Notes under the pieces: generated by a model
Seen by the model: only the letters and a program-made list of their open reading frames with translations
What the model was told of the DNA's origin: nothing
Databases searched by the model: none
Position numbers and translations under genes: made by a program
Shown: positions 53,573 to 61,124 of the stretch, piece after piece
Numbering within the stretch: the first letter of the stretch is position 1
Layout of the letters: each line of letters opens with the position of its first letter
Assembly (NCBI RefSeq): GCF_001742145.1
Contig: NZ_CP015749.1
Coordinates: 3,100,001 to 3,164,000 of the forward strand
Direction: 5' to 3'
Origin: Pectobacterium parmentieri
GTDB lineage: Bacteria; Pseudomonadota; Gammaproteobacteria; Enterobacterales; Enterobacteriaceae
Length of the DNA: 64,000 bases

Positions 53573-53592
53573 TTTCCACTTAGAAGTGGAAA
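53573..53592. promoter_or_regulatory. Palindrome upstream of the DUF4310-4312 operon
   Basis: TTTCCACTT-AG-AAGTGGAAA is a perfect inverted repeat with nine-base arms. A second palindrome, TAACGT-CAA-ACGTTA, lies at 53612-53626. They are 53 to 106 bp before the first gene and are candidates for binding of the operon's PRD-type activator. Confidence 0.55.
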
Positions 53593-53678
53593 ATTACTCG
53601 CTACAAACTCTTAACGTCAAACGTTAGCTTTATACCGAGGCCATTAATGGGGTAAGACGAGTGAATAACGGAGCGGTA

Positions 53679-53999
53679 ATGAACGACGTTGGAGATCGGG
53701 CGGAGCAAACAGCAACCCTTGCCGAGCGTATGCTGGCGCAAATTTACACGTTGCTAAACCACCACGACATCACACCGAACGCAGTACAGCAACAGATGCT
53801 AACTTCTCACGTCCGCGCGATGGCTCACCGGTCCGTGACCGGCGAACCGCTGCCGGATGTGGACGCCAGCCTGTTTGACGAAATTTCGCCAGAGTCGATG
53901 GGTCTTGCCCACGATGTGGTGGAGGAATTTGGCAACCTCCCAGAGGAAGAGGCCTGGCTGCTGTCAGTCCACTTTGAAGTAGCAAAAAATAACCTATAA
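53679..53999 (+). CDS. Small stand-alone PRD-domain protein
   Basis: A 106-residue protein consisting of one PTS-regulation-domain-like unit: it ends ...GNLPEEEAWLLSVHFEVAKNNL, where the LPxxExxLLxxHFE pattern holds the His typical of PRDs, and it has SHVRAMAHRSVTGE earlier. It has no DNA-binding part. The ATG at 53679 has GGAG five bases upstream; GTG at 53661 is an alternative. It is the first gene of the operon, 10 bp before the SFCGS gene. It may sense or accept phosphoryl groups. Confidence 0.8.
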   Translation: MNDVGDRAEQTATLAERMLAQIYTLLNHHDITPNAVQQQMLTSHVRAMAHRSVTGEPLPDVDASLFDEISPESMGLAHDVVEEFGNLPEEEAWLLSVHFEVAKNNL

Positions 54000-54009
54000 G
54001 GAACGGAAG

Positions 54010-54372
54010 ATGGAACAGATTACTGTCGTCATTGGCGATCGTTTAGGTAAAGGCCAGAAAGTGGCAGCAGGTGTTGAAAAAGCAGGAGGCCGCGCGGTTG
54101 TCGTACCCGGCGTCGCAGCGGATATGAAGCTGGGTGATGTGATGAAAGCGGAAAACGCAACCTTCGGTATTTCATTTTGTGGTAGTGGCGGCGCAGGTGC
54201 CATCACTGCGCAGAATAAATACGGCTACAAAGCCAAATACGGCATGCGCTCTGTTGAGGAGGGTGTCACCGCCATCAACGAAGGCTGCAACGTACTAGGA
54301 TTCGGTTTTATGGATAAAGAAGAATTAGGCGAACGTCTGGTACTGGCGTGGCAAAAAAAGTACGGCGTATAA
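54010..54372 (+). CDS. Glycine-rich SFCGS family protein
   Basis: A 120-residue soluble protein whose name-giving motif ISFCGSGGAGAITAQ places a conserved Cys at residue 57 after a beta strand. It begins ITVVIGDRLGKGQKVAAGVEKAGG and has CNVLGFGFMDKEELGERLV. Cys followed by glycines and small residues resembles the phosphocysteine loop of PTS EIIB domains (C-x-x-G-x-x-S/T), although its position in the chain differs. Function unknown; it always seems to travel with DUF4310-4312 genes, here in tight succession. RBS AAGGAACGGAAG. Confidence 0.85.
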   Translation: MEQITVVIGDRLGKGQKVAAGVEKAGGRAVVVPGVAADMKLGDVMKAENATFGISFCGSGGAGAITAQNKYGYKAKYGMRSVEEGVTAINEGCNVLGFGFMDKEELGERLVLAWQKKYGV

Positions 54373-54374
54373 CC

Positions 54375-54671
54375 ATGAAAGAACAATTCACCACCACTGT
54401 CAGGGTTAAAGGAAAAGGTGATGAGAAAGCACGCGCCTTCGCCGATGCACTGAACCATGTTCAAACCGCGGTGATGAAGGCATCACCGCATATTTTACTG
54501 CGTATTGAACCACAGGAAGTGCAGGTTGTTCATGCGCACGAAACGGCGCGTAAAGAGGCGTTTTTGTTCCTCTTTCTGCGTCGAGAAAGACGCACGTACA
54601 GCGTGGAGCTGGACGTTACCGTCAACGTGACCGCCATCAATCTCGATAAAGTGGATTTTGTCACGGCATAA
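54375..54671 (+). CDS. DUF4312 family protein
   Basis: A 98-residue soluble protein. It starts FTTTVRVKGKGDEKARAFADALNHVQ and holds HILLRIEPQEVQVVHAHETARKEAFLFLF, ending in VELDVTVNVTAINLDKVDFVTA. A beta-alpha-beta fold is likely. The gene starts two bases after the SFCGS stop. No catalytic motif is evident; a His or two might matter. Family known only as DUF4312. Confidence 0.85.
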   Translation: MKEQFTTTVRVKGKGDEKARAFADALNHVQTAVMKASPHILLRIEPQEVQVVHAHETARKEAFLFLFLRRERRTYSVELDVTVNVTAINLDKVDFVTA

Positions 54672-54737
54672 CTCAACGCATATCCAGTTTTTCGCCCCGC
54701 AGGGCGGCGGATTGGCAAGATAGAAGAGGGCTGACTG

Positions 54738-55514
54738 ATGTTCTTAATCATACTAATAAAATCGCTCATCATTGGCGGCCTAGTTGGCGTCGGCGTTGGC
54801 GCAGGGGCTGCACGCATGTTTCATGCGCCTACCACTCAGGGGATGGGCGCATTTCGTACACTGGGCGAACTAAACTCTTGTGAAGGGGATCCGGCGTCAC
54901 ATTTCTCCTTTGGGCTGGGCTTCTTTTTTAACGCCTGGGCATCCTCCGTTGCGGCAGGGTCTTTCACTCAGGATGTTGACCACCGCATTATCCCAAACTG
55001 GGGCGCGGCGGCATTGATGGTGAGAAACCGTAATGTTGGCGAAACCCTACACGATCCCAAAAAGATGGCCATTGCTTGCGGTCTGATTGGCATGATCGTG
55101 GTGACTTTCCTTAATTTGACTGCCTCTTCCGTACCCGCAGCACTACAGGTGACCGCCGTTAAAGTGCTGGTTCCCGCAGCCAATCTACTAGTGAACATCG
55201 TGATGCCGGTGATCTTCTGGCTAGCTGCAATTGACGCAGGCAAAAAGTCCGGCTTCTGGGCCACCGTTTTCGGCGGCTCAGCACAACTGATTATGGGTAA
55301 CGCCGTACCGGGATTGGTTCTGGGTATTTTGATTGGTAAAGGTGTGGAAGAGAGCGGCTGGAACCGCGTTACCAAAGTGATGATGACAGCAATTGTTGCG
55401 CTGTTCGTGCTGAGCGCCTTCTTCCGCGGTTTCGATCTGAAAGTGATCGCATCCTTCAACCTGAGCGCGCCAAACTGGCTGGAGCTCATCCACAATTCGC
55501 TCAGCGGTAAATAA
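54738..55514 (+). CDS. DUF4311 family membrane protein
   Basis: A 258-residue integral membrane protein with about six hydrophobic segments: residues 4-26, 55-78, 108-130, 142-165, 180-203 and 214-233. Soluble loops carry DPASHFSFGLGFFFNAWASS and RNRNVGETLHDPKKMAIA. It is glycine-rich and has FGGSAQLIMGNAVPGLVLG. It is likely a channel subunit with DUF4310. No homology to ABC, MFS or known PTS EIIC is apparent by eye. GAGGGCTGACTG precedes the ATG. Confidence 0.85.
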   Translation: MFLIILIKSLIIGGLVGVGVGAGAARMFHAPTTQGMGAFRTLGELNSCEGDPASHFSFGLGFFFNAWASSVAAGSFTQDVDHRIIPNWGAAALMVRNRNVGETLHDPKKMAIACGLIGMIVVTFLNLTASSVPAALQVTAVKVLVPAANLLVNIVMPVIFWLAAIDAGKKSGFWATVFGGSAQLIMGNAVPGLVLGILIGKGVEESGWNRVTKVMMTAIVALFVLSAFFRGFDLKVIASFNLSAPNWLELIHNSLSGK

Positions 55515-55523
55515 GGAAAGACG

Positions 55524-56165
55524 ATGGAACAGAATAAAGGCTTTTGGTACGCCGACTGGTCATTCCCGATTTTCGTCGGCCTGCTCTCTTCCGGCGTTTT
55601 CGCCGGGACACATATGTATTACCTGTACGGCATTGGCGCGTTTAATGAAGTCGCGTTCGTATCAATGCTGCGTGCCGGGATGGATACCGGTGTCTACGGT
55701 GCGGTAGCGGCATTCGGTGCCAGTTTCCTGTTCGCCCGTATTATCGAGGGTTCACTGGTGGGGATCCTTGATATCGGCGGCGCAATCCAGACCGGTGTGG
55801 GTCTCGGCGTTCCGGCACTATTACTCGGTGCAGGTTTTGTGTTCCCGGTTGCGAACTTTGTTGCTTCTCTGGCGACGGGTCTGGTGATCGGTTTGGCGAT
55901 TGGCTACCTGATTATTCTGGCTCGTAAATTTACTATCAACCAAAGCGACTCTACCTACGGTGCAGATGTGATGATGGGCGCGGGTAACGCCTCTGGTCGC
56001 TTCCTTGGCCCGTTGATCATTCTCAGCGCGATGACAGCTTCAATTCCAATCGGCATCGGTTCTTTAGTAGGCGCACTGCTGTTCTATCTCTGGCAAAAGC
56101 CGATCACCGGAGGCGCGATCTTGGGGGCGATGCTGCTGGGCTCCCTCTTCCCAATCGCCCTCTGA
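55524..56165 (+). CDS. DUF4310 family membrane protein
   Basis: A 213-residue, Gly/Ala-rich membrane protein with five to six segments. It has GGAIQTGVGLGVPALLLGAG, YGADVMMGAGNASGRFLGPLIILSAM and ends GAILGAMLLGSLFPIAL. It is probably the second half of the permease with DUF4311. AAGGAAAGACG lies before the ATG, nine bases after the preceding stop. The transporter substrate is inferred from the catabolic genes downstream. Confidence 0.85.
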   Translation: MEQNKGFWYADWSFPIFVGLLSSGVFAGTHMYYLYGIGAFNEVAFVSMLRAGMDTGVYGAVAAFGASFLFARIIEGSLVGILDIGGAIQTGVGLGVPALLLGAGFVFPVANFVASLATGLVIGLAIGYLIILARKFTINQSDSTYGADVMMGAGNASGRFLGPLIILSAMTASIPIGIGSLVGALLFYLWQKPITGGAILGAMLLGSLFPIAL

Positions 56166-56207
56166 CACACACGGGCACTGAGGTGCCCGTTACTACTGGA
56201 GATATGT

Positions 56208-57341
56208 ATGTTTGATTTACTCCTGCGCCGGGCGCGTCTGGCTGACGACACAGTAACGGATATTGCCATCAAGTCAGGGAAAATCGCCGCATTGGGGGAG
56301 ATCCACGGCGCGGCACTCAAAACCATCAACCTACACGCAGCGCACTACGTGAGTGCCGGCTGGATCGATTCCCATGTGCACTGCTACCCGCACTCCCCAA
56401 TCTACCACGACCAGCCAGACAGTGTGGGGATCGCCACTGGCGTAACCACCGTCATTGATGCTGGCAGCACCGGCGCTGATGACGTGGATGATTTTTATAC
56501 GATTACTCGCCAGGCAGTAACCGAGGTATACGCGCTGCTGAATATCTCTCGCGTAGGGCTTATCGCGCAGAATGAACTGGCCGATATGGCCAATATTGAT
56601 GCCGAGGCCGTGCGCGATGCAGTGAAGCGCCACCCCCATTTTATCGTCGGTTTGAAAGCGCGGATGAGCAGTAGCGTGGTCGGCGAGAACGGTATCGCAC
56701 CTCTGGAGCGCGCGAAGGCAATTCAGAAAGCAAACGGCGAACTACCATTAATGGTACACATTGGTAACAACCCGCCGCACCTTGATGAAATTGCCGATCT
56801 GCTGACCACAGGGGACATCATTACCCACTGCTATAACGGCAAACCGAATCGTATTCTCACCCCTAGCGGTGAGCTGCGAGCATCGGTGGCGCGTGCGATT
56901 GCGCGCGGTGTACGGCTGGATGTCGGACATGGCAGCGCCAGTTTCAGCTTTGCCGTGGCGCAGCAGGCGATAGCCTTGGGGATTTTGCCACAAACCATCA
57001 GTTCCGATATCTACTGTCGCAATCGCATCGACGGCCCGGTGCGAACGCTTGCAAACGTAATGTCCAAATTCCTCGCCATTGGTCTATCACTGCCACAGGT
57101 CATTGCCTGTGTGACTGGCAATGCCGCCGCCGCCCTGCATCTGGAGTGTAAAGGTCAGCTTATCGCTGGTTATGACGCCGACCTGACGATCTTCGATCTA
57201 CGCAAACAACCAATACGATTTACCGACGCGGAAAACGACAGTTTGCAGGCTGACCAGTTACTTACGCCATTGGCTGCCATTCGTATGGGAAAAATCTATC
57301 TGACCGAACAAGGGAGTGCAGAACATGCCTTCGATTTATGA
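56208..57341 (+). CDS. Amidohydrolase/deacetylase (COG3964-like)
   Basis: A 377-residue metal-dependent amidohydrolase. Metal ligands are visible in DSHVHCYPH (HxH), the probably carbamylated Lys of GLKARMSSSVVG, His in LMVHIGNNPP, His in IITHCYNG, and the catalytic Asp in TISSDIYCRN. Relatives deacetylate N-acetyl amino acids or similar small amides. In this operon it would remove an acyl group from an amino-sugar acid before ammonia elimination. It starts behind GGAGATATGT and overlaps the next gene by 17 bases. Confidence 0.88.
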   Translation: MFDLLLRRARLADDTVTDIAIKSGKIAALGEIHGAALKTINLHAAHYVSAGWIDSHVHCYPHSPIYHDQPDSVGIATGVTTVIDAGSTGADDVDDFYTITRQAVTEVYALLNISRVGLIAQNELADMANIDAEAVRDAVKRHPHFIVGLKARMSSSVVGENGIAPLERAKAIQKANGELPLMVHIGNNPPHLDEIADLLTTGDIITHCYNGKPNRILTPSGELRASVARAIARGVRLDVGHGSASFSFAVAQQAIALGILPQTISSDIYCRNRIDGPVRTLANVMSKFLAIGLSLPQVIACVTGNAAAALHLECKGQLIAGYDADLTIFDLRKQPIRFTDAENDSLQADQLLTPLAAIRMGKIYLTEQGSAEHAFDL

Positions 57342-58443
57342 AAAGTATCAGTTAAAACGCGTCATCAATGCCTCGGGGCGCATGACCGTACTCGGTGTTT
57401 CCACGCCACGTCCAGACGTGGTGGATGCGGTATTAAGTGGCATGAACCACTACTTCGAAATGAAAGATCTGGTGAACAAAACCGGTGAATACATCGCCAG
57501 GCTGTTAGAGGTTGAAGGCGCAACCGTGGTGTCATGCGCATCGGCAGGAATTGCCCAATCTGTTGCGGCAGTGCTGGTACGCGACAGCGACTGGCTGCTG
57601 GAAAACCTGCACAGCACGGTGATGGATAACAACGAAATCGTACTACCACGCGGCCATAACGTTAACTTCGGGGCACCAGTCAGCACCATGGTTACGCTGG
57701 GCGGAGGAAAAGTCGTGGAAGCGGGCTACGCCAACGAGTGCTCAGCAGACCAACTGGCGGCGGCAATTTCATCACGCACAGCGGCAATCCTCTACATTAA
57801 ATCCCACCACTGTGTACAAAAGAGCATGCTCAGCGTTGAACAGGCCGCTGCGGTGGCGCACAAACACAACTTGCCGCTGATTGTCGATGCGGCAGCGGAA
57901 GAAGATTTACAGTGCTACTACCGTGCTGGAGCCGACCTGGTTATTTACAGCGGTGCGAAGGCGATTGAAGGACCAACCAGCGGGCTGGTGATCGGTAAAA
58001 CACAGTATGTGGAGTGGGTAAAACGCCAGACGGCAGGTATTGGCCGCGCGATGAAGGTAGGCAAAGAAGGCATCCTCGGCCTGACTTGCGCCATCGAGCA
58101 CTACCTCAGCACAAGTAAAGAGAGTGGCGCGGAAATGGTCGCCAAAATGACGCCGTTTCTTGAACATCTCAATACCCTGAAGGGCGTTAGCGCCCGTGTA
58201 GTGTGGGACAGCGCCGGGCGCGATATTGCCCGCAGCGAAATAAAATTTGATGAAGCCACTACTGGTATTGCCACTGGTGAACTGGTTAGCGCCCTAAAAC
58301 AAGGAGAATACGCTATCTACTTCCGTGGCTACAAAACCAATGAAGGGATTATCGAAGCCGATGTACGCAGCGTGACGGCCGACCAGTTAGAAATCGTTTA
58401 CCGCCGTATCGCCGAAGAATTGAACAAGGAGCACACAGCATGA
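57325..58443 (+). CDS. DgaE-like PLP-dependent ammonia-lyase
   Basis: A 372-residue SelA-like aminotransferase-fold enzyme. It begins YEKYQLKRVINASGRMTVLGVS and carries IYSGAKAIEGPTSGLVIG with the PLP lysine, as in DgaE (D-glucosaminate-6-phosphate ammonia-lyase of Salmonella). It should convert an amino-sugar acid phosphate to 2-keto-3-deoxy-6-phosphogluconate and NH3. The ATG at 57325 has GGGAG eight bases upstream. Its stop overlaps the aldolase start as ATGA. Confidence 0.87.
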   Translation: MPSIYEKYQLKRVINASGRMTVLGVSTPRPDVVDAVLSGMNHYFEMKDLVNKTGEYIARLLEVEGATVVSCASAGIAQSVAAVLVRDSDWLLENLHSTVMDNNEIVLPRGHNVNFGAPVSTMVTLGGGKVVEAGYANECSADQLAAAISSRTAAILYIKSHHCVQKSMLSVEQAAAVAHKHNLPLIVDAAAEEDLQCYYRAGADLVIYSGAKAIEGPTSGLVIGKTQYVEWVKRQTAGIGRAMKVGKEGILGLTCAIEHYLSTSKESGAEMVAKMTPFLEHLNTLKGVSARVVWDSAGRDIARSEIKFDEATTGIATGELVSALKQGEYAIYFRGYKTNEGIIEADVRSVTADQLEIVYRRIAEELNKEHTA

Positions 58444-59177
58444 AACTGACGCCAAATTTTTACCGTGACCGTGTATGCCTGAATGTGCTGGCGGGCAGCA
58501 AAGAGAACGCCAGTGAAATTTACGACGCTGCCGAAGGGCATGTACTGGTAGGTGTGCTGTCAAAAAACTACCCGGATGTGGCAAGCGCCGTGGCGGATAT
58601 GCGTGATTATGCCGAACGTATCAACAACGCGCTATCTATTGGCCTTGGAGCAGGCGATCCGAGCCAATCGGCGATGGTCAGCCTCATCGCCCGTGAAGTA
58701 CAACCGCAACACGTCAATCAGGTATTTACTGGTGTGGCAACCAGCCGCGCACTGCTGAGCCAAAACGACACCGTGGTGAACGGACTGGTGTCGCCAACCG
58801 GTACGCCAGGTCTGGTAAAAATTTCCACCGGGCCACTCAGCAGCCAGACAACAGACGGCATCGTGCCAGTCGATACCGCGATTGCCCTGCTAAAGGATAT
58901 GGGCGGTAGCTCGATTAAATACTTCCCGATGGGCGGCCTGAAATGCCGTGATGAGTATCAGGCCGTCGCTGAAGCCTGTGCGCGTAACGGGTTCTGGCTG
59001 GAGCCGACTGGCGGAATCGATCTGGATAATTATAGTGAGATCTTACAAATCGCTCTGGATGCAGGGGTCAGCAAAATCATTCCGCACATTTATAGCTCTA
59101 TTATTGATAAGGTGAGCGGCAACACTCGTCCATCCGATGTTCGCCAACTGCTGGCAATGACCAAAGCGCGAGTGTAA
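58440..59177 (+). CDS. KDGP aldolase family protein (DgaF-like)
   Basis: A 245-residue class I aldolase that should split KDGP into pyruvate and glyceraldehyde-3-phosphate. It has LGAGDPSQSAMVSLIAREVQPQHVNQVF, SPTGTPGLVKISTGPLS, and YFPMGGLKCRDEYQAVAEACARNGFWLEPTGGIDL. The Lys in GLKCR is a good Schiff-base candidate. It shares an ATGA overlap with the DgaE-like gene. Confidence 0.88.
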   Translation: MKLTPNFYRDRVCLNVLAGSKENASEIYDAAEGHVLVGVLSKNYPDVASAVADMRDYAERINNALSIGLGAGDPSQSAMVSLIAREVQPQHVNQVFTGVATSRALLSQNDTVVNGLVSPTGTPGLVKISTGPLSSQTTDGIVPVDTAIALLKDMGGSSIKYFPMGGLKCRDEYQAVAEACARNGFWLEPTGGIDLDNYSEILQIALDAGVSKIIPHIYSSIIDKVSGNTRPSDVRQLLAMTKARV

Positions 59178-59213
59178 CGGGCTCAGGACTTAAGACTACG
59201 CGAGGAGACCGAC

Positions 59214-61124
59214 GTGCGATTCCCTAACCAACGTTTAGCGCAACTATTTATAATGTTGCAGAACGAGACGCTACCACAGGATGAGTTGGCACAACGGCTA
59301 TCGGTGTCCACGCGTACCGTTCGCGCAGATATCACTGCATTAAACGCGCTGCTGGAACAACACGGTGCACAGTTTATTCTGACGCGTGGTAGCGGTTATC
59401 AGTTGAAAATCGACGATGAAACGCGTTACCAGACGTTACAAACCACCCGCTCGCGCGCACTGCGCATCCCCCGTAGCGGGCAGGAACGCGTGCAATATCT
59501 GGTGGTCAGGTTTCTGACCTCAGCGTTCTCCCTCAAACTTGAAGACCTGGCGGACGAATGGTTTGTCAGTCGTGCCACGTTGCAAAATGATATGGCCGAA
59601 GTGCGAGAGAGACTCTCCCGCTACCAATTAATACTGGAGACGCGTCCGCGCCACGGCATGAAGCTGTTTGGCAGTGAAATGTCTCTGCGCGCCTGTCTGA
59701 CCGATCTGCTATGGGAACTGACACAACAGAGCACGAAAAGCCCGCTGCTCACTGAAGAAACACTTAATCTGGGTGTACCAGAGGCGCTTGCAGCTATCTT
59801 ACATGACTGTTTTAGTCAGCATCACATTCGCCTCACCGATGAGGGAGATTTGTTTATTCGCCTCTACTGTGCGGTGGCGATACGTCGCATCAGCGAAGGC
59901 TACCCCTTATCGGAATTTAGCGCCGAGGATGGTGATGACAACGTGCGTGACGCCGCGAAGGATATTTCGGCAGCGTTGCAACAATTGGCGGGGAAACCGC
60001 TGGCTGCCGCTGAAGAACACTGGCTGCGGGTACATATTGCCGGGCGGCGTGTACAGGAACTCGTACCAAGCACCATCAGTGCCGATGACGATGAAACGCT
60101 GGTGAACTACATCCTCGGCTATATCAACACACACTATAACTACAACCTGCAAGATGATGCGCAACTGCACGCAGATTTGCTGACACATATCAAGACCATG
60201 ATCACCCGCGTGCGTTACCAGATAATGCTTCCTAATCCACTGTTGGATAACATCAAACAGCACTATCCGATGGCATGGGATATGACGCTGGCGGCAGTCT
60301 CAAGCTGGGGAAAATACACGCCATATGTGATCAGCGAAAACGAGATAGGCTTCCTGGTATTGCATATCGGTGTTGGTCTTGAACGGCATTACAATATCGG
60401 CTACCAGCGCCAGCCACACGTGTTACTCGTGTGCGATGCCGGTAATGCAATGGTCCGGATGATTGAAGCGGTGCTGGTGCGTAAGTATCCGCAGATCATC
60501 GTTACGCGTACCGTTACTCTGCGCGAATATGAACAGTGTGGGGGCATTGTCGAAGATTTTGTGATTTCCACAGCACGTATTAGCGAAAAAGATAAACCCG
60601 TAGTTACCATCGCACCTTTCCCTACCGACTATCAGTTAGAACAGATCGGTAAGCGAGTGCTGGTGGATCGCACTCGACCGTGGATGCTAGAGAAGTATTT
60701 CGACGCGGCGCATTTTCGTATTATTGATGGCACGATCGATCAGCAAACGCTGTTTACTACCCTGTGCGATCAGTTGCGTGATGAAGGTTTTGTCGATACA
60801 GCGTTCCTCGATTCAGTGGTCGAGCGTGAAGCGATTGTCAGCACTTTGTTTGGCGAAGGGATTGCGCTGCCGCATTCACTGGGCCTGCTGGCGCAAAAAA
60901 CCGTAGTCTATACCGTATTAGCCCCGCAGGGGATCCAATGGGGAGAAGAAACCGCACATGTGATCTTTTTACTGGCGATTAGCAAACGCGAGTATGAAGA
61001 GGCAATGGCTATCTACGATATCTTTGTCACCTTCCTGCGTGAACGCGCCACGGCAAGATTGTGTGCCTGTACAGATTTTGCAGCATTCAAGACGATAGCA
61101 ATGGAATGTGTCAGCCGTTTTTGA
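59214..61124 (+). CDS. PRD-type transcriptional regulator with EIIB and EIIA domains
   Basis: A 636-residue activator or antiterminator. An N-terminal HTH (ETLPQDELAQRLSVSTRTVRADITALNALL) is followed by a Mga-like helix set, two PRDs (about 190-400), an EIIB-like domain with VCDAGNAMVRM (Cys407) and a C-terminal EIIA-like domain with IALPHSLGLL (His554). Such proteins respond to phosphorylation by HPr and EII proteins. GTG at 59214 follows GAGGAGACCGAC. It closes the operon, so it probably controls the transport and catabolic genes. Confidence 0.93.
   Translation: MRFPNQRLAQLFIMLQNETLPQDELAQRLSVSTRTVRADITALNALLEQHGAQFILTRGSGYQLKIDDETRYQTLQTTRSRALRIPRSGQERVQYLVVRFLTSAFSLKLEDLADEWFVSRATLQNDMAEVRERLSRYQLILETRPRHGMKLFGSEMSLRACLTDLLWELTQQSTKSPLLTEETLNLGVPEALAAILHDCFSQHHIRLTDEGDLFIRLYCAVAIRRISEGYPLSEFSAEDGDDNVRDAAKDISAALQQLAGKPLAAAEEHWLRVHIAGRRVQELVPSTISADDDETLVNYILGYINTHYNYNLQDDAQLHADLLTHIKTMITRVRYQIMLPNPLLDNIKQHYPMAWDMTLAAVSSWGKYTPYVISENEIGFLVLHIGVGLERHYNIGYQRQPHVLLVCDAGNAMVRMIEAVLVRKYPQIIVTRTVTLREYEQCGGIVEDFVISTARISEKDKPVVTIAPFPTDYQLEQIGKRVLVDRTRPWMLEKYFDAAHFRIIDGTIDQQTLFTTLCDQLRDEGFVDTAFLDSVVEREAIVSTLFGEGIALPHSLGLLAQKTVVYTVLAPQGIQWGEETAHVIFLLAISKREYEEAMAIYDIFVTFLRERATARLCACTDFAAFKTIAMECVSRF

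What the first reader, a model, noticed from the sequence alone, without database searches (positions are those of the whole stretch)
53573..61124. Operon with an uncharacterised four-part transporter (DUF4310, DUF4311, DUF4312, SFCGS)
Nine tightly spaced genes combine two multi-pass membrane DUF proteins and two small soluble DUF proteins with a deacetylase, a DgaE-like lyase, a KDGP aldolase and PTS-type regulators. No ABC, MFS, TRAP or classical PTS permease is present, while the catabolic genes need an import step. The simplest reading is that DUF4310/4311 form the channel and DUF4312/SFCGS the cytoplasmic partners of a new transporter class, perhaps phosphorylating because all regulators are PTS-linked.
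Basis: partly seen in the sequence, partly recalled or inferred. Interest (0 to 1): 0.9.

Follow-up and report, generated by a model that had tools for sequence, protein, structure and literature searches.

The report
Uncharacterised import module in aminosugar-acid operon
Nine neighbouring genes look like a complete kit for importing and eating an acetylated sugar acid of the sort released from chitin, and the import part is built from proteins that resemble no known transporter; that import role is inferred from gene neighbourhoods, not yet shown.

Summary
The operon is real: nine genes on one strand, 53661-61124, all matching named families. NCBIfam already groups eight of them as EF_0829-EF_0839/AHA_3910-3917 without naming a function for the DUF proteins; my searches found no paper that does. 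All 80 relatives examined (best 80 of 469) keep the nine genes in the same order. Related DgaE/aldolase operons carry a mannose-type PTS, a gluconate symporter or a lactose-type PTS instead of the DUF module, so DUF4311/DUF4310 is the import step by substitution. Likely substrate: N-acetyl-D-glucosaminate; 50 of 80 relatives add a lactonase. PTS linkage is supported (Bartonella plasmids place HPr-EI directly after the operon; conserved PRD histidines), but phosphorylating transport is not shown: the genome has a separate KDG kinase. SFCGS may be a distant RpiB-fold protein related to E. coli YhfU (mixed signals). The membrane pair could not be folded (pLDDT 36). Verdict: real, partly supported, worth testing.

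The parts
53661..53999 (+). standalone PRD-domain protein, EF_0829/AHA_3910 family (112 aa)
   Evidence: TIGR03582 137.5 bits, over cut-off; PF00874 17.8 bits, below its cut-off of 23; His50 and His104 invariant in 84 of 84 distinct sequences
54010..54372 (+). SFCGS glycine-rich protein (120 aa); conserved D10-R11, G13-K14-G15-Q16 and C57-G-S-G-G
   Evidence: PF14272/TIGR03577; Cys57 in 73 of 74 distinct sequences, the exception being a damaged locus, L092; AF2 model pLDDT 67, beta-alpha-beta-alpha-beta with Cys57 after strand 3
54375..54671 (+). DUF4312 small soluble protein (98 aa)
   Evidence: PF14189/TIGR03578
54738..55514 (+). DUF4311 membrane protein (258 aa; 5 strongly hydrophobic segments by a simple scan)
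   Evidence: PF14188/TIGR03580; hydropathy
55524..56165 (+). DUF4310 membrane protein (213 aa; 5-6 hydrophobic segments by the same scan)
   Evidence: PF14187/TIGR03579; hydropathy
56208..57341 (+). EF_0837-type amidohydrolase/deacetylase (377 aa)
   Evidence: TIGR03583 556 bits over cut-off; PDB 8wzy 657 bits over residues 1-376
57328..58443 (+). DgaE-family PLP ammonia-lyase (371 aa)
   Evidence: TIGR01437; PDB 7lc0/7lce 300 bits; residues aligned to H162, H163, R301, R332, R346 conserved
58440..59177 (+). KDGP aldolase, DgaF type (245 aa)
   Evidence: PF07071; NF047796 390 bits over 300 cut-off; PDB 3m0z 462 bits
59214..61124 (+). HTH/Mga-PRD-EIIA_2 transcriptional regulator (636 aa)
   Evidence: PF08279, PF05043, PF00874, PF00359; EIIA His554 in 85 of 88 distinct sequences, gap in the three Enterococcus/Listeria-labelled rows

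Best explanation
The operon imports and degrades an acetylated amino-sugar acid, most likely N-acetyl-D-glucosaminate (GlcNAc1A, 2-acetamido-2-deoxygluconate). DUF4311 and DUF4310 together form the inner-membrane permease. SFCGS, DUF4312 and the small PRD protein are its cytoplasmic subunits, and the unit is energised or gated by the PTS phosphoryl chain (PEP, EI, HPr, then PRD or the regulator's EIIA). In the preferred form the substrate leaves the permease as the 6-phosphate, perhaps through Cys57 of SFCGS. [quoted passage not shown] Shown here: gene content, conservation, transporter substitution, conserved residues, the HPr-EI neighbour. Inferred: substrate identity, transport itself, subunit roles, phosphorylation.
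For: Catabolic enzymes match deacetylase, DgaE and DgaF families. Substitution: Lacticaseibacillus (L179) and two sampled genomes (L206, L207) have mannose-type EIIABCD beside DgaE and aldolase; Priestia (L180) has a gluconate:H+ symporter; C. difficile (L178) and Niallia (L182) have lactose-type EIIC plus MupG; none of these six loci shows a match to the DUF module. A PfkB kinase is found in the three of these six without a mannose-type PTS and in none of the three with one; DUF-module loci without another permease show none: 0 of 80, 0 of 10 further genome regions, 0 of 2 Bartonella plasmids, none in the window. Two related Bartonella plasmids carry ptsP directly after the operon; it is an HPr-EI fusion in the one scanned, with GLHARPA and TSHVAI (active-site motifs as recalled) intact, and the other has a 100% tblastn match to it. 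Median identity to the window over 80 loci: SFCGS 95.8, DUF4310 93.9, DUF4311 91.8, against 78.8 deacetylase, 85.7 lyase, 86.5 aldolase. 50 of 80 relatives have a lactonase match between aldolase and regulator, as do 6 of 10 further regions; 46 of the 49 with a readable start look signal-peptide-like by a crude rule. Lyase residues placed near the phosphate by published docking (PMC9529869, passages read) are invariant in 85 of 85 distinct sequences.
Against: No uptake or phosphorylation was measured. No sequence similarity of DUF4311/DUF4310 to a transporter family or solved structure in the searches made. The window's genome has a KdgK over its curated cut-off (524 vs 400 bits), so phosphate could come later. 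The three arginines are also present in loci with a kinase, so they do not discriminate. DUF4312 (median 86.6%) and the PRD protein (74.1%) are not better conserved than the enzymes. In E. faecalis the DUF module coexists with an EIIC, MupG and a kinase. The two Firmicutes-type regulators scanned have no EIIA match, so no dedicated EIIA is in sight there. AF2 gave no usable membrane model. The two Bartonella plasmids are related and count as one event.
Confidence: 0.5

Rival explanations
1. The DUF module is an importer but does not phosphorylate. N-acetyl-glucosaminate enters unchanged, is deacetylated and deaminated to KDG, and the chromosomal KdgK then makes KDG-6-P, as in the published ong pathway of Pseudoalteromonas. 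PTS only controls expression and perhaps transport activity through the PRD domains.
For: KdgK over cut-off in the window's genome. The ong pathway works this way with a sodium symporter, and its enzymes gave no product on phosphorylated GlcNAc1A (PMC9537276, passages read). The kinases beside the Priestia, C. difficile and E. faecalis lyases match KDG-kinase-type models, all below cut-off, and their lyases keep the same arginines. PRD domains are usually regulatory (recalled). No EIIB or EIIC family match.
Against: The operon's lyase is of the DgaE type, whose characterised member acts on the 6-phosphate, and keeps the docked phosphate arginines. DUF-only loci lack the local kinase found beside the gluconate symporter. 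Bartonella plasmids bring their own HPr-EI.
Confidence: 0.32
2. DUF4311/DUF4310 are an extremely diverged form of the mannose-type PTS EIIC/EIID pair, with SFCGS as a relic of EIIB.
For: Two small membrane subunits of similar size; dga, the closest pathway, uses that PTS family. SFCGS reads GDRLGKGQ where mannose-type EIIB typically reads DDRLIHGQ, in register at residues 1-32; hhalign score 19.3 against a shuffled-column null of mean 12.0, sd 2.4, maximum 18.8 of 25.
Against: The phosphorylated His of EIIB (recalled) is Lys in SFCGS. No Pfam match to a PTS family; no hhalign signal to EIIC-Sor, EIID or EIIC-GAT, though I had no proven positive control (EIIC against EIID, run alongside, gave none), so the power of that test is unknown.
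Confidence: 0.08
3. The four proteins are not the importer. SFCGS is an RpiB-like enzyme of the pathway, the membrane proteins are a sensor or exporter, and uptake is done by a permease encoded elsewhere.
For: SFCGS members match LacAB_rpiB weakly (5 of 6, best E 0.013) and RpiB uses the equivalent cysteine in catalysis (recalled).
Against: The module is replaced by known transporters in related operons. In the yhf operons, with different enzymes, an RpiB-like Cys protein also sits directly beside a polytopic membrane protein, with a small PRD gene in the operon. No permease gene beside the operon is shared by the window, Klebsiella and Salmonella stretches shown.
Confidence: 0.1

Closest known systems
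dgaABCDEF, D-glucosaminate PTS and catabolism of Salmonella (description seen in passages of PMC9529869)
   Same: DgaE-type lyase and DgaF-type aldolase feeding KDG-6-P into the Entner-Doudoroff end; PTS-linked
   Different: dga imports free glucosaminate through a mannose-type EIIABCD; the three mannose-type loci examined here show no deacetylase match. Here a deacetylase is present and the four EII genes are replaced by SFCGS, DUF4312, DUF4311, DUF4310.
ong cluster, oxidative chitin use in Pseudoalteromonas prydzensis (PMC9537276 and PMC12017989, passages seen)
   Same: Deacetylation then deamination of GlcNAc1A, ending at KDG-6-P
   Different: ong uses a sodium symporter, a D-aminoacylase-type deacetylase, a D-amino-acid-deaminase-type enzyme and KdgK; this operon has an EF_0837-type deacetylase and a DgaE-type lyase, and no symporter or kinase
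EF_0829-EF_0839/AHA_3910-3917 conserved cluster (NCBIfam models TIGR03577-TIGR03583, TIGR01437)
   Same: This operon is a member: all eight non-regulator proteins pass the model cut-offs
   Different: Nothing structural; the models name no function for the four DUF proteins
yhfSTUVWXYZ operon of E. coli K-12 (YhfY PRD, YhfU DUF2620, YhfT membrane)
   Same: Small PRD protein, an RpiB-like Cys protein and, beside it, a polytopic membrane protein in one operon; PRD match hhalign probability 91; YhfU versus SFCGS score 19.0 against null maximum 15.7 of 25
   Different: Different enzymes, one membrane protein instead of two, no DUF4312; membrane proteins show no detectable similarity

Membership tests
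EF_0829-EF_0839/AHA_3910-3917 cluster | all eight family models over their curated cut-offs | tested here: met
   TIGR03582, 03577, 03578, 03580, 03579, 03583, 01437, 03581 all over cut-off
PTS Enzyme II (any class) | sequence match to an EIIB or EIIC/EIID family | tested here: not met
   no Pfam match to a PTS permease or EIIB family at E<=1 for SFCGS, DUF4311 or DUF4310 (HMMER's filters drop most matches above about 0.1)
PTS Enzyme II (any class) | EIIC-like fold of the membrane subunits | tested here: inconclusive
   AF2 of the joined pair pLDDT 36; hhalign without signal and without a proven positive control
PTS Enzyme II (any class) | substrate phosphorylated during import | not testable with these tools
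   only indirect: no kinase match in DUF-only loci, HPr-EI in Bartonella; against: KdgK in the genome
Mannose-type PTS (dga) | phosphorylatable His in the EIIB RLIHGQ motif | tested here: not met
   SFCGS has Lys14 at that position in the register (the alignment itself is marginal; the role of the His is recalled)
RpiB/LacAB isomerases | match over the Pfam gathering score | tested here: not met
   14.5 bits against 24.7; 5 of 6 members match weakly, best E 0.013
RpiB/LacAB isomerases | same fold with Cys after strand 3 | tested here: inconclusive
   model has Cys57 after strand 3 but pLDDT <50 for residues 59-97; RpiB only rank 31 in Foldseek, E 0.85
dga-type catabolic branch | DgaE-type lyase with active-site residues and DgaF-type aldolase | tested here: met
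   but the lyase is below the narrow NF047797 cut-off (384 of 600 bits), R226 is Lys in 84 of 85 and H162 is Ala in Bartonella
ong pathway | SSS transporter OngIT and OngB/OngC-type enzymes | tested here: not met
   none of the nine proteins is named an SSS transporter by the libraries, and the deacetylase and lyase belong to EF_0837 and DgaE families; not compared directly with OngB/OngC sequences

The most novel reading that the evidence does not exclude
A new class of PTS-driven permease: a standalone PRD domain acts as the EIIA-like phosphocarrier, an RpiB-fold protein with a P-loop-like cysteine (SFCGS, and YhfU in E. coli) acts as the EIIB-like subunit, and a membrane protein unrelated to every known EIIC (DUF4311+DUF4310, or YhfT) moves the substrate. 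It would include the uncharacterised yhf system of E. coli K-12.
Probability: 0.15. Interest if true: 0.9.

Novelty: new variant of a known kind. Interest (0 to 1): 0.62.

Why it matters
If right, it gives function to four protein families that NCBIfam and Pfam leave without one; 469 stretches of the species-genome collection encode a DUF4310 relative, and the operon occurs in Salmonella, Klebsiella and Enterococcus records. It would add a transporter class to the known bacterial sugar-uptake mechanisms and offer a route by which bacteria lacking the ong genes could use oxidised chitin sugars; a proteomic study of Aeromonas on chitin left that route unconfirmed (PMC11653859, passages seen). 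The link to yhf would make an unexplained E. coli K-12 operon testable.

Tried and rejected
Structure of the membrane pair: DUF4311 and DUF4310 lie in one frame 9 bases apart, so I folded them as one chain by reading the TAA between them as Gly, with 90 further rows (22 joined, the rest single proteins) of 88-98% identity. The result was unusable (pLDDT 36, pTM 0.26), probably because the alignment was too uniform. No fold search was run on it. DUF4312 was not folded.

YhfT as a fused DUF4311-DUF4310: looked plausible by eye at the N-terminus, but hhalign gave nothing (best P 0.15). Not claimed.

Phosphate arginines of the lyase as proof of a phosphorylated substrate: rejected as decisive after one search showed them in kinase-bearing loci too.

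DUF4311 matches DUF2232 weakly (5 of 6 members, best E 0.008); not pursued. Viral contigs: three scans, no relatives. E. coli: no near match to a 4-kb piece among 5,426 genomes. LPMO in the window's genome: none, so the organism would have to scavenge the substrate; this counts against a chitin-oxidising lifestyle of the host itself. Promoter/terminator scan upstream: nothing.
Full report
What is there. Nine genes, 53661-61124, all on the + strand, spaced -14 to 66 bases apart. In order: small PRD protein, SFCGS, DUF4312, DUF4311, DUF4310, deacetylase, DgaE-type lyase, KDGP aldolase, PRD/EIIA regulator. NCBIfam already has models for the first eight (EF_0829-EF_0839/AHA_3910-3917 and TIGR01437); those of SFCGS, DUF4312, DUF4311 and DUF4310 are named only as conserved hypothetical proteins. 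In Salmonella the same genes are annotated as equivalents of STM4440-STM4448. Searches for DUF4310-4312 (0 papers), SFCGS, EF08xx, STM444x and AHA39xx names found no functional paper; the library holds open-licence PMC papers only, and one search listed 40 of 160, mostly unrelated. Of the three STM444x papers I looked into one, where STM4446 is a line in an expression table (PMC11000858, one passage).

Conservation. A scan of species genomes found 469 stretches encoding a DUF4310 relative; the best 80 were returned and examined, so the sample leans to close relatives. All 80 have matches to all nine genes, in the same order and strand; one, L092, has damaged genes and lost SFCGS at a stricter length filter. 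In a more even sample of 398 Pseudomonadota genomes, 12 have DUF4310 and the same 12 have a DgaE-family protein over cut-off; eight further genomes have only below-cut-off lyase matches. All 12 belong to the window's family. More distant operons with the same core come from two Bartonella plasmids, E. faecalis and a record labelled Listeria phage that reads as bacterial DNA. In L013, L014, L098 and L100, identity to the window is SFCGS 70-76%, DUF4311 67-72%, DUF4310 69-75%, against deacetylase 47-54% and lyase 51-62%; the aldolase, where complete enough, is also high (63-72%), while DUF4312 (47-49%) and the PRD protein (38-41%) are low. So three of the four DUF proteins, not all four, are unusually conserved. 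Among the loci I opened, none has the four genes without the catabolic genes, except an Aeromonas caviae record where an apparent deletion has removed most of DUF4310, the deacetylase and the lyase.

Pathway. The aldolase passes the DgaF model; the lyase belongs to the DgaE family but scores below the narrow D-glucosaminate-6-P lyase model (384 of 600 bits). Against the solved lyase (7lc0/7lce), residues aligned to H163, K213, R301, R332 and R346 are invariant in 85 of 85 distinct sequences, H162 in 84, while R226 is Lys in 84 (incomplete and duplicate sequences were dropped first). R301, R332 and R346 are near the phosphate in a manual docking (PMC9529869, passages). The deacetylase suggests an N-acetylated substrate. 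In 50 of 80 relatives a lactonase match sits between aldolase and regulator (the Klebsiella protein is PF10282), and in 6 of 10 further regions; 46 of 49 readable starts look signal-peptide-like by a crude rule. The window lacks it. A lactone outside the cytoplasm and an acetylated aldonate inside point to N-acetyl-D-glucosaminate: oxidative chitin cleavage leaves a terminal 1,5-lactone in equilibrium with the aldonic acid (PMC12017989, passages). This is inference; related acetylated sugar acids are not excluded. The window's genome has no LPMO.

Who imports it? I compared what stands beside DgaE-type lyases elsewhere. The plasmid searches matched 222 records for the lyase and 214 for the deacetylase, 60 of each listed; besides those already seen I opened five: C. 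difficile (L178), Lacticaseibacillus (L179), Priestia (L180), Niallia (L182) and one Rhizobium deacetylase locus (L181), where no lyase is annotated within 7 kb and which I left out of the comparison. Second lyase copies in two sampled genomes gave L206 and L207. Mannose-type EIIABCD: L179, L206, L207, with neither kinase nor deacetylase match. Gluconate symporter: L180, with kinase and deacetylase. Lactose-type EIIC with MupG: L178, L182, with kinase and deacetylase. DUF module alone: 80 of 80 relatives, 10 of 10 further genome regions (of 11 other positive genomes; one was not fetched), two Bartonella plasmids and the window, with deacetylase and without a kinase match. The Listeria-labelled record also shows none but ends about 0.3 kb after the aldolase. 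E. faecalis is the exception: DUF module, EIIC, MupG and kinase together. So the DUF module occupies the transporter slot and, for kinase content, groups with the mannose-PTS loci. Two cautions: only six non-DUF loci were compared, and the window's genome carries a KdgK elsewhere, so the missing local kinase proves little in enterobacteria.

PTS link. The regulator carries EIIA with its His conserved in 85 of 88 distinct sequences; the three gaps are the Enterococcus and Listeria-labelled rows (L013, L098, L100), and the two of these scanned have no EIIA match. The small PRD protein keeps His50 and His104 in 84 of 84 sequences; YhfY keeps only the first of these in the three sequences seen. 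In both Bartonella plasmids the gene after the regulator is annotated ptsP; in HY406 it is an HPr-EI fusion with both active-site motifs (recalled) intact, and HY761 has a 100% tblastn match to it. Alphaproteobacteria usually lack sugar-type PTS (recalled), so carrying the phosphoryl donor with the operon suggests it is needed, whether for transport or for control.

SFCGS. Five of six members weakly match LacAB_rpiB and three of six DUF2620, the family of YhfU; one member also matched Cecropin at E 0.003, which shows the noise. hhalign against shuffled-column nulls (25 each): YhfU-SFCGS 19.0 against maximum 15.7; RpiB-like set 2 with YhfU 29.0 against 19.2 and with SFCGS 20.5 against 16.9; RpiB set 1 with SFCGS 14.2, not above its null. 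Cys57 is present in 73 of 74. The AF2 model (pLDDT 67) puts it after strand 3, as in RpiB and unlike classical EIIB (both recalled), but residues 59-97 are unreliable. A second, marginal resemblance is the N-terminal GDRLGKGQ to DDRLIHGQ of mannose-type EIIB.

Wider pattern. In E. coli K-12 and Cetobacterium the yhf operon also has a small PRD gene and an RpiB-like Cys protein (YhfU) directly beside a polytopic membrane protein (YhfT), with different enzymes; a Vibrio plasmid shows the same three by tblastn. This is the main reason to read SFCGS as a transport subunit rather than a pathway enzyme. The membrane proteins themselves show no similarity by the profiles I could build.

Verdict. A real, conserved, uncharacterised operon. 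Import by DUF4311/DUF4310 is the best reading; a PTS-driven, phosphorylating mechanism is about as likely as not. The families are known, the function is not.

Noticed in passing
L014:8047-10062 and L130:15405-17420: Two related Bartonella plasmids (HY406, HY761) carry the whole operon followed by ptsP, an HPr-EI fusion; the HY761 plasmid also has its rep/par genes twice, in opposite orientations, upstream.
   Followed up: partly
L017:4936-12345 and L101:5294-13657: yhf operon of E. coli K-12 and a Cetobacterium plasmid: PRD protein, DUF2620 (YhfU, CNTGxGxAL) and YhfT, an arrangement parallel to the operon in hand.
   Followed up: partly
L016:9714-10271: Aeromonas caviae KAM479: one reading frame runs from the DUF4310 start into the aldolase, as if most of DUF4310, the deacetylase and the lyase had been deleted or misassembled.
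   Followed up: no
L098 (OR848318.1), L100 (OR846593.1): Records deposited as Listeria and Enterococcus phages whose stretches read as bacterial chromosome carrying this operon.
   Followed up: no
window 56208-57341: PDB 8wzy, labelled dihydroorotase, matches this deacetylase at 657 bits over residues 1-376; the label looks doubtful.
   Followed up: no
L178:5310-11906, L182, L013:10548-17263: Lactose-type EIIC plus MupG plus deacetylase, DgaE-type lyase, aldolase and PfkB kinase: possibly a pathway for a disaccharide ending in an N-acetylated aldonate.
   Followed up: no
L135-L141, L143: Proteins with open frames of about 215-228 aa matching LacAB_rpiB only over about residues 1-105 of the model (GCGTGQG motif in L136), in several Enterobacterales including the window's genome.
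   Followed up: no
L092: Leclercia locus with several shortened operon genes (gaps of 260-396 bases between neighbours), perhaps sequencing errors.
   Followed up: no
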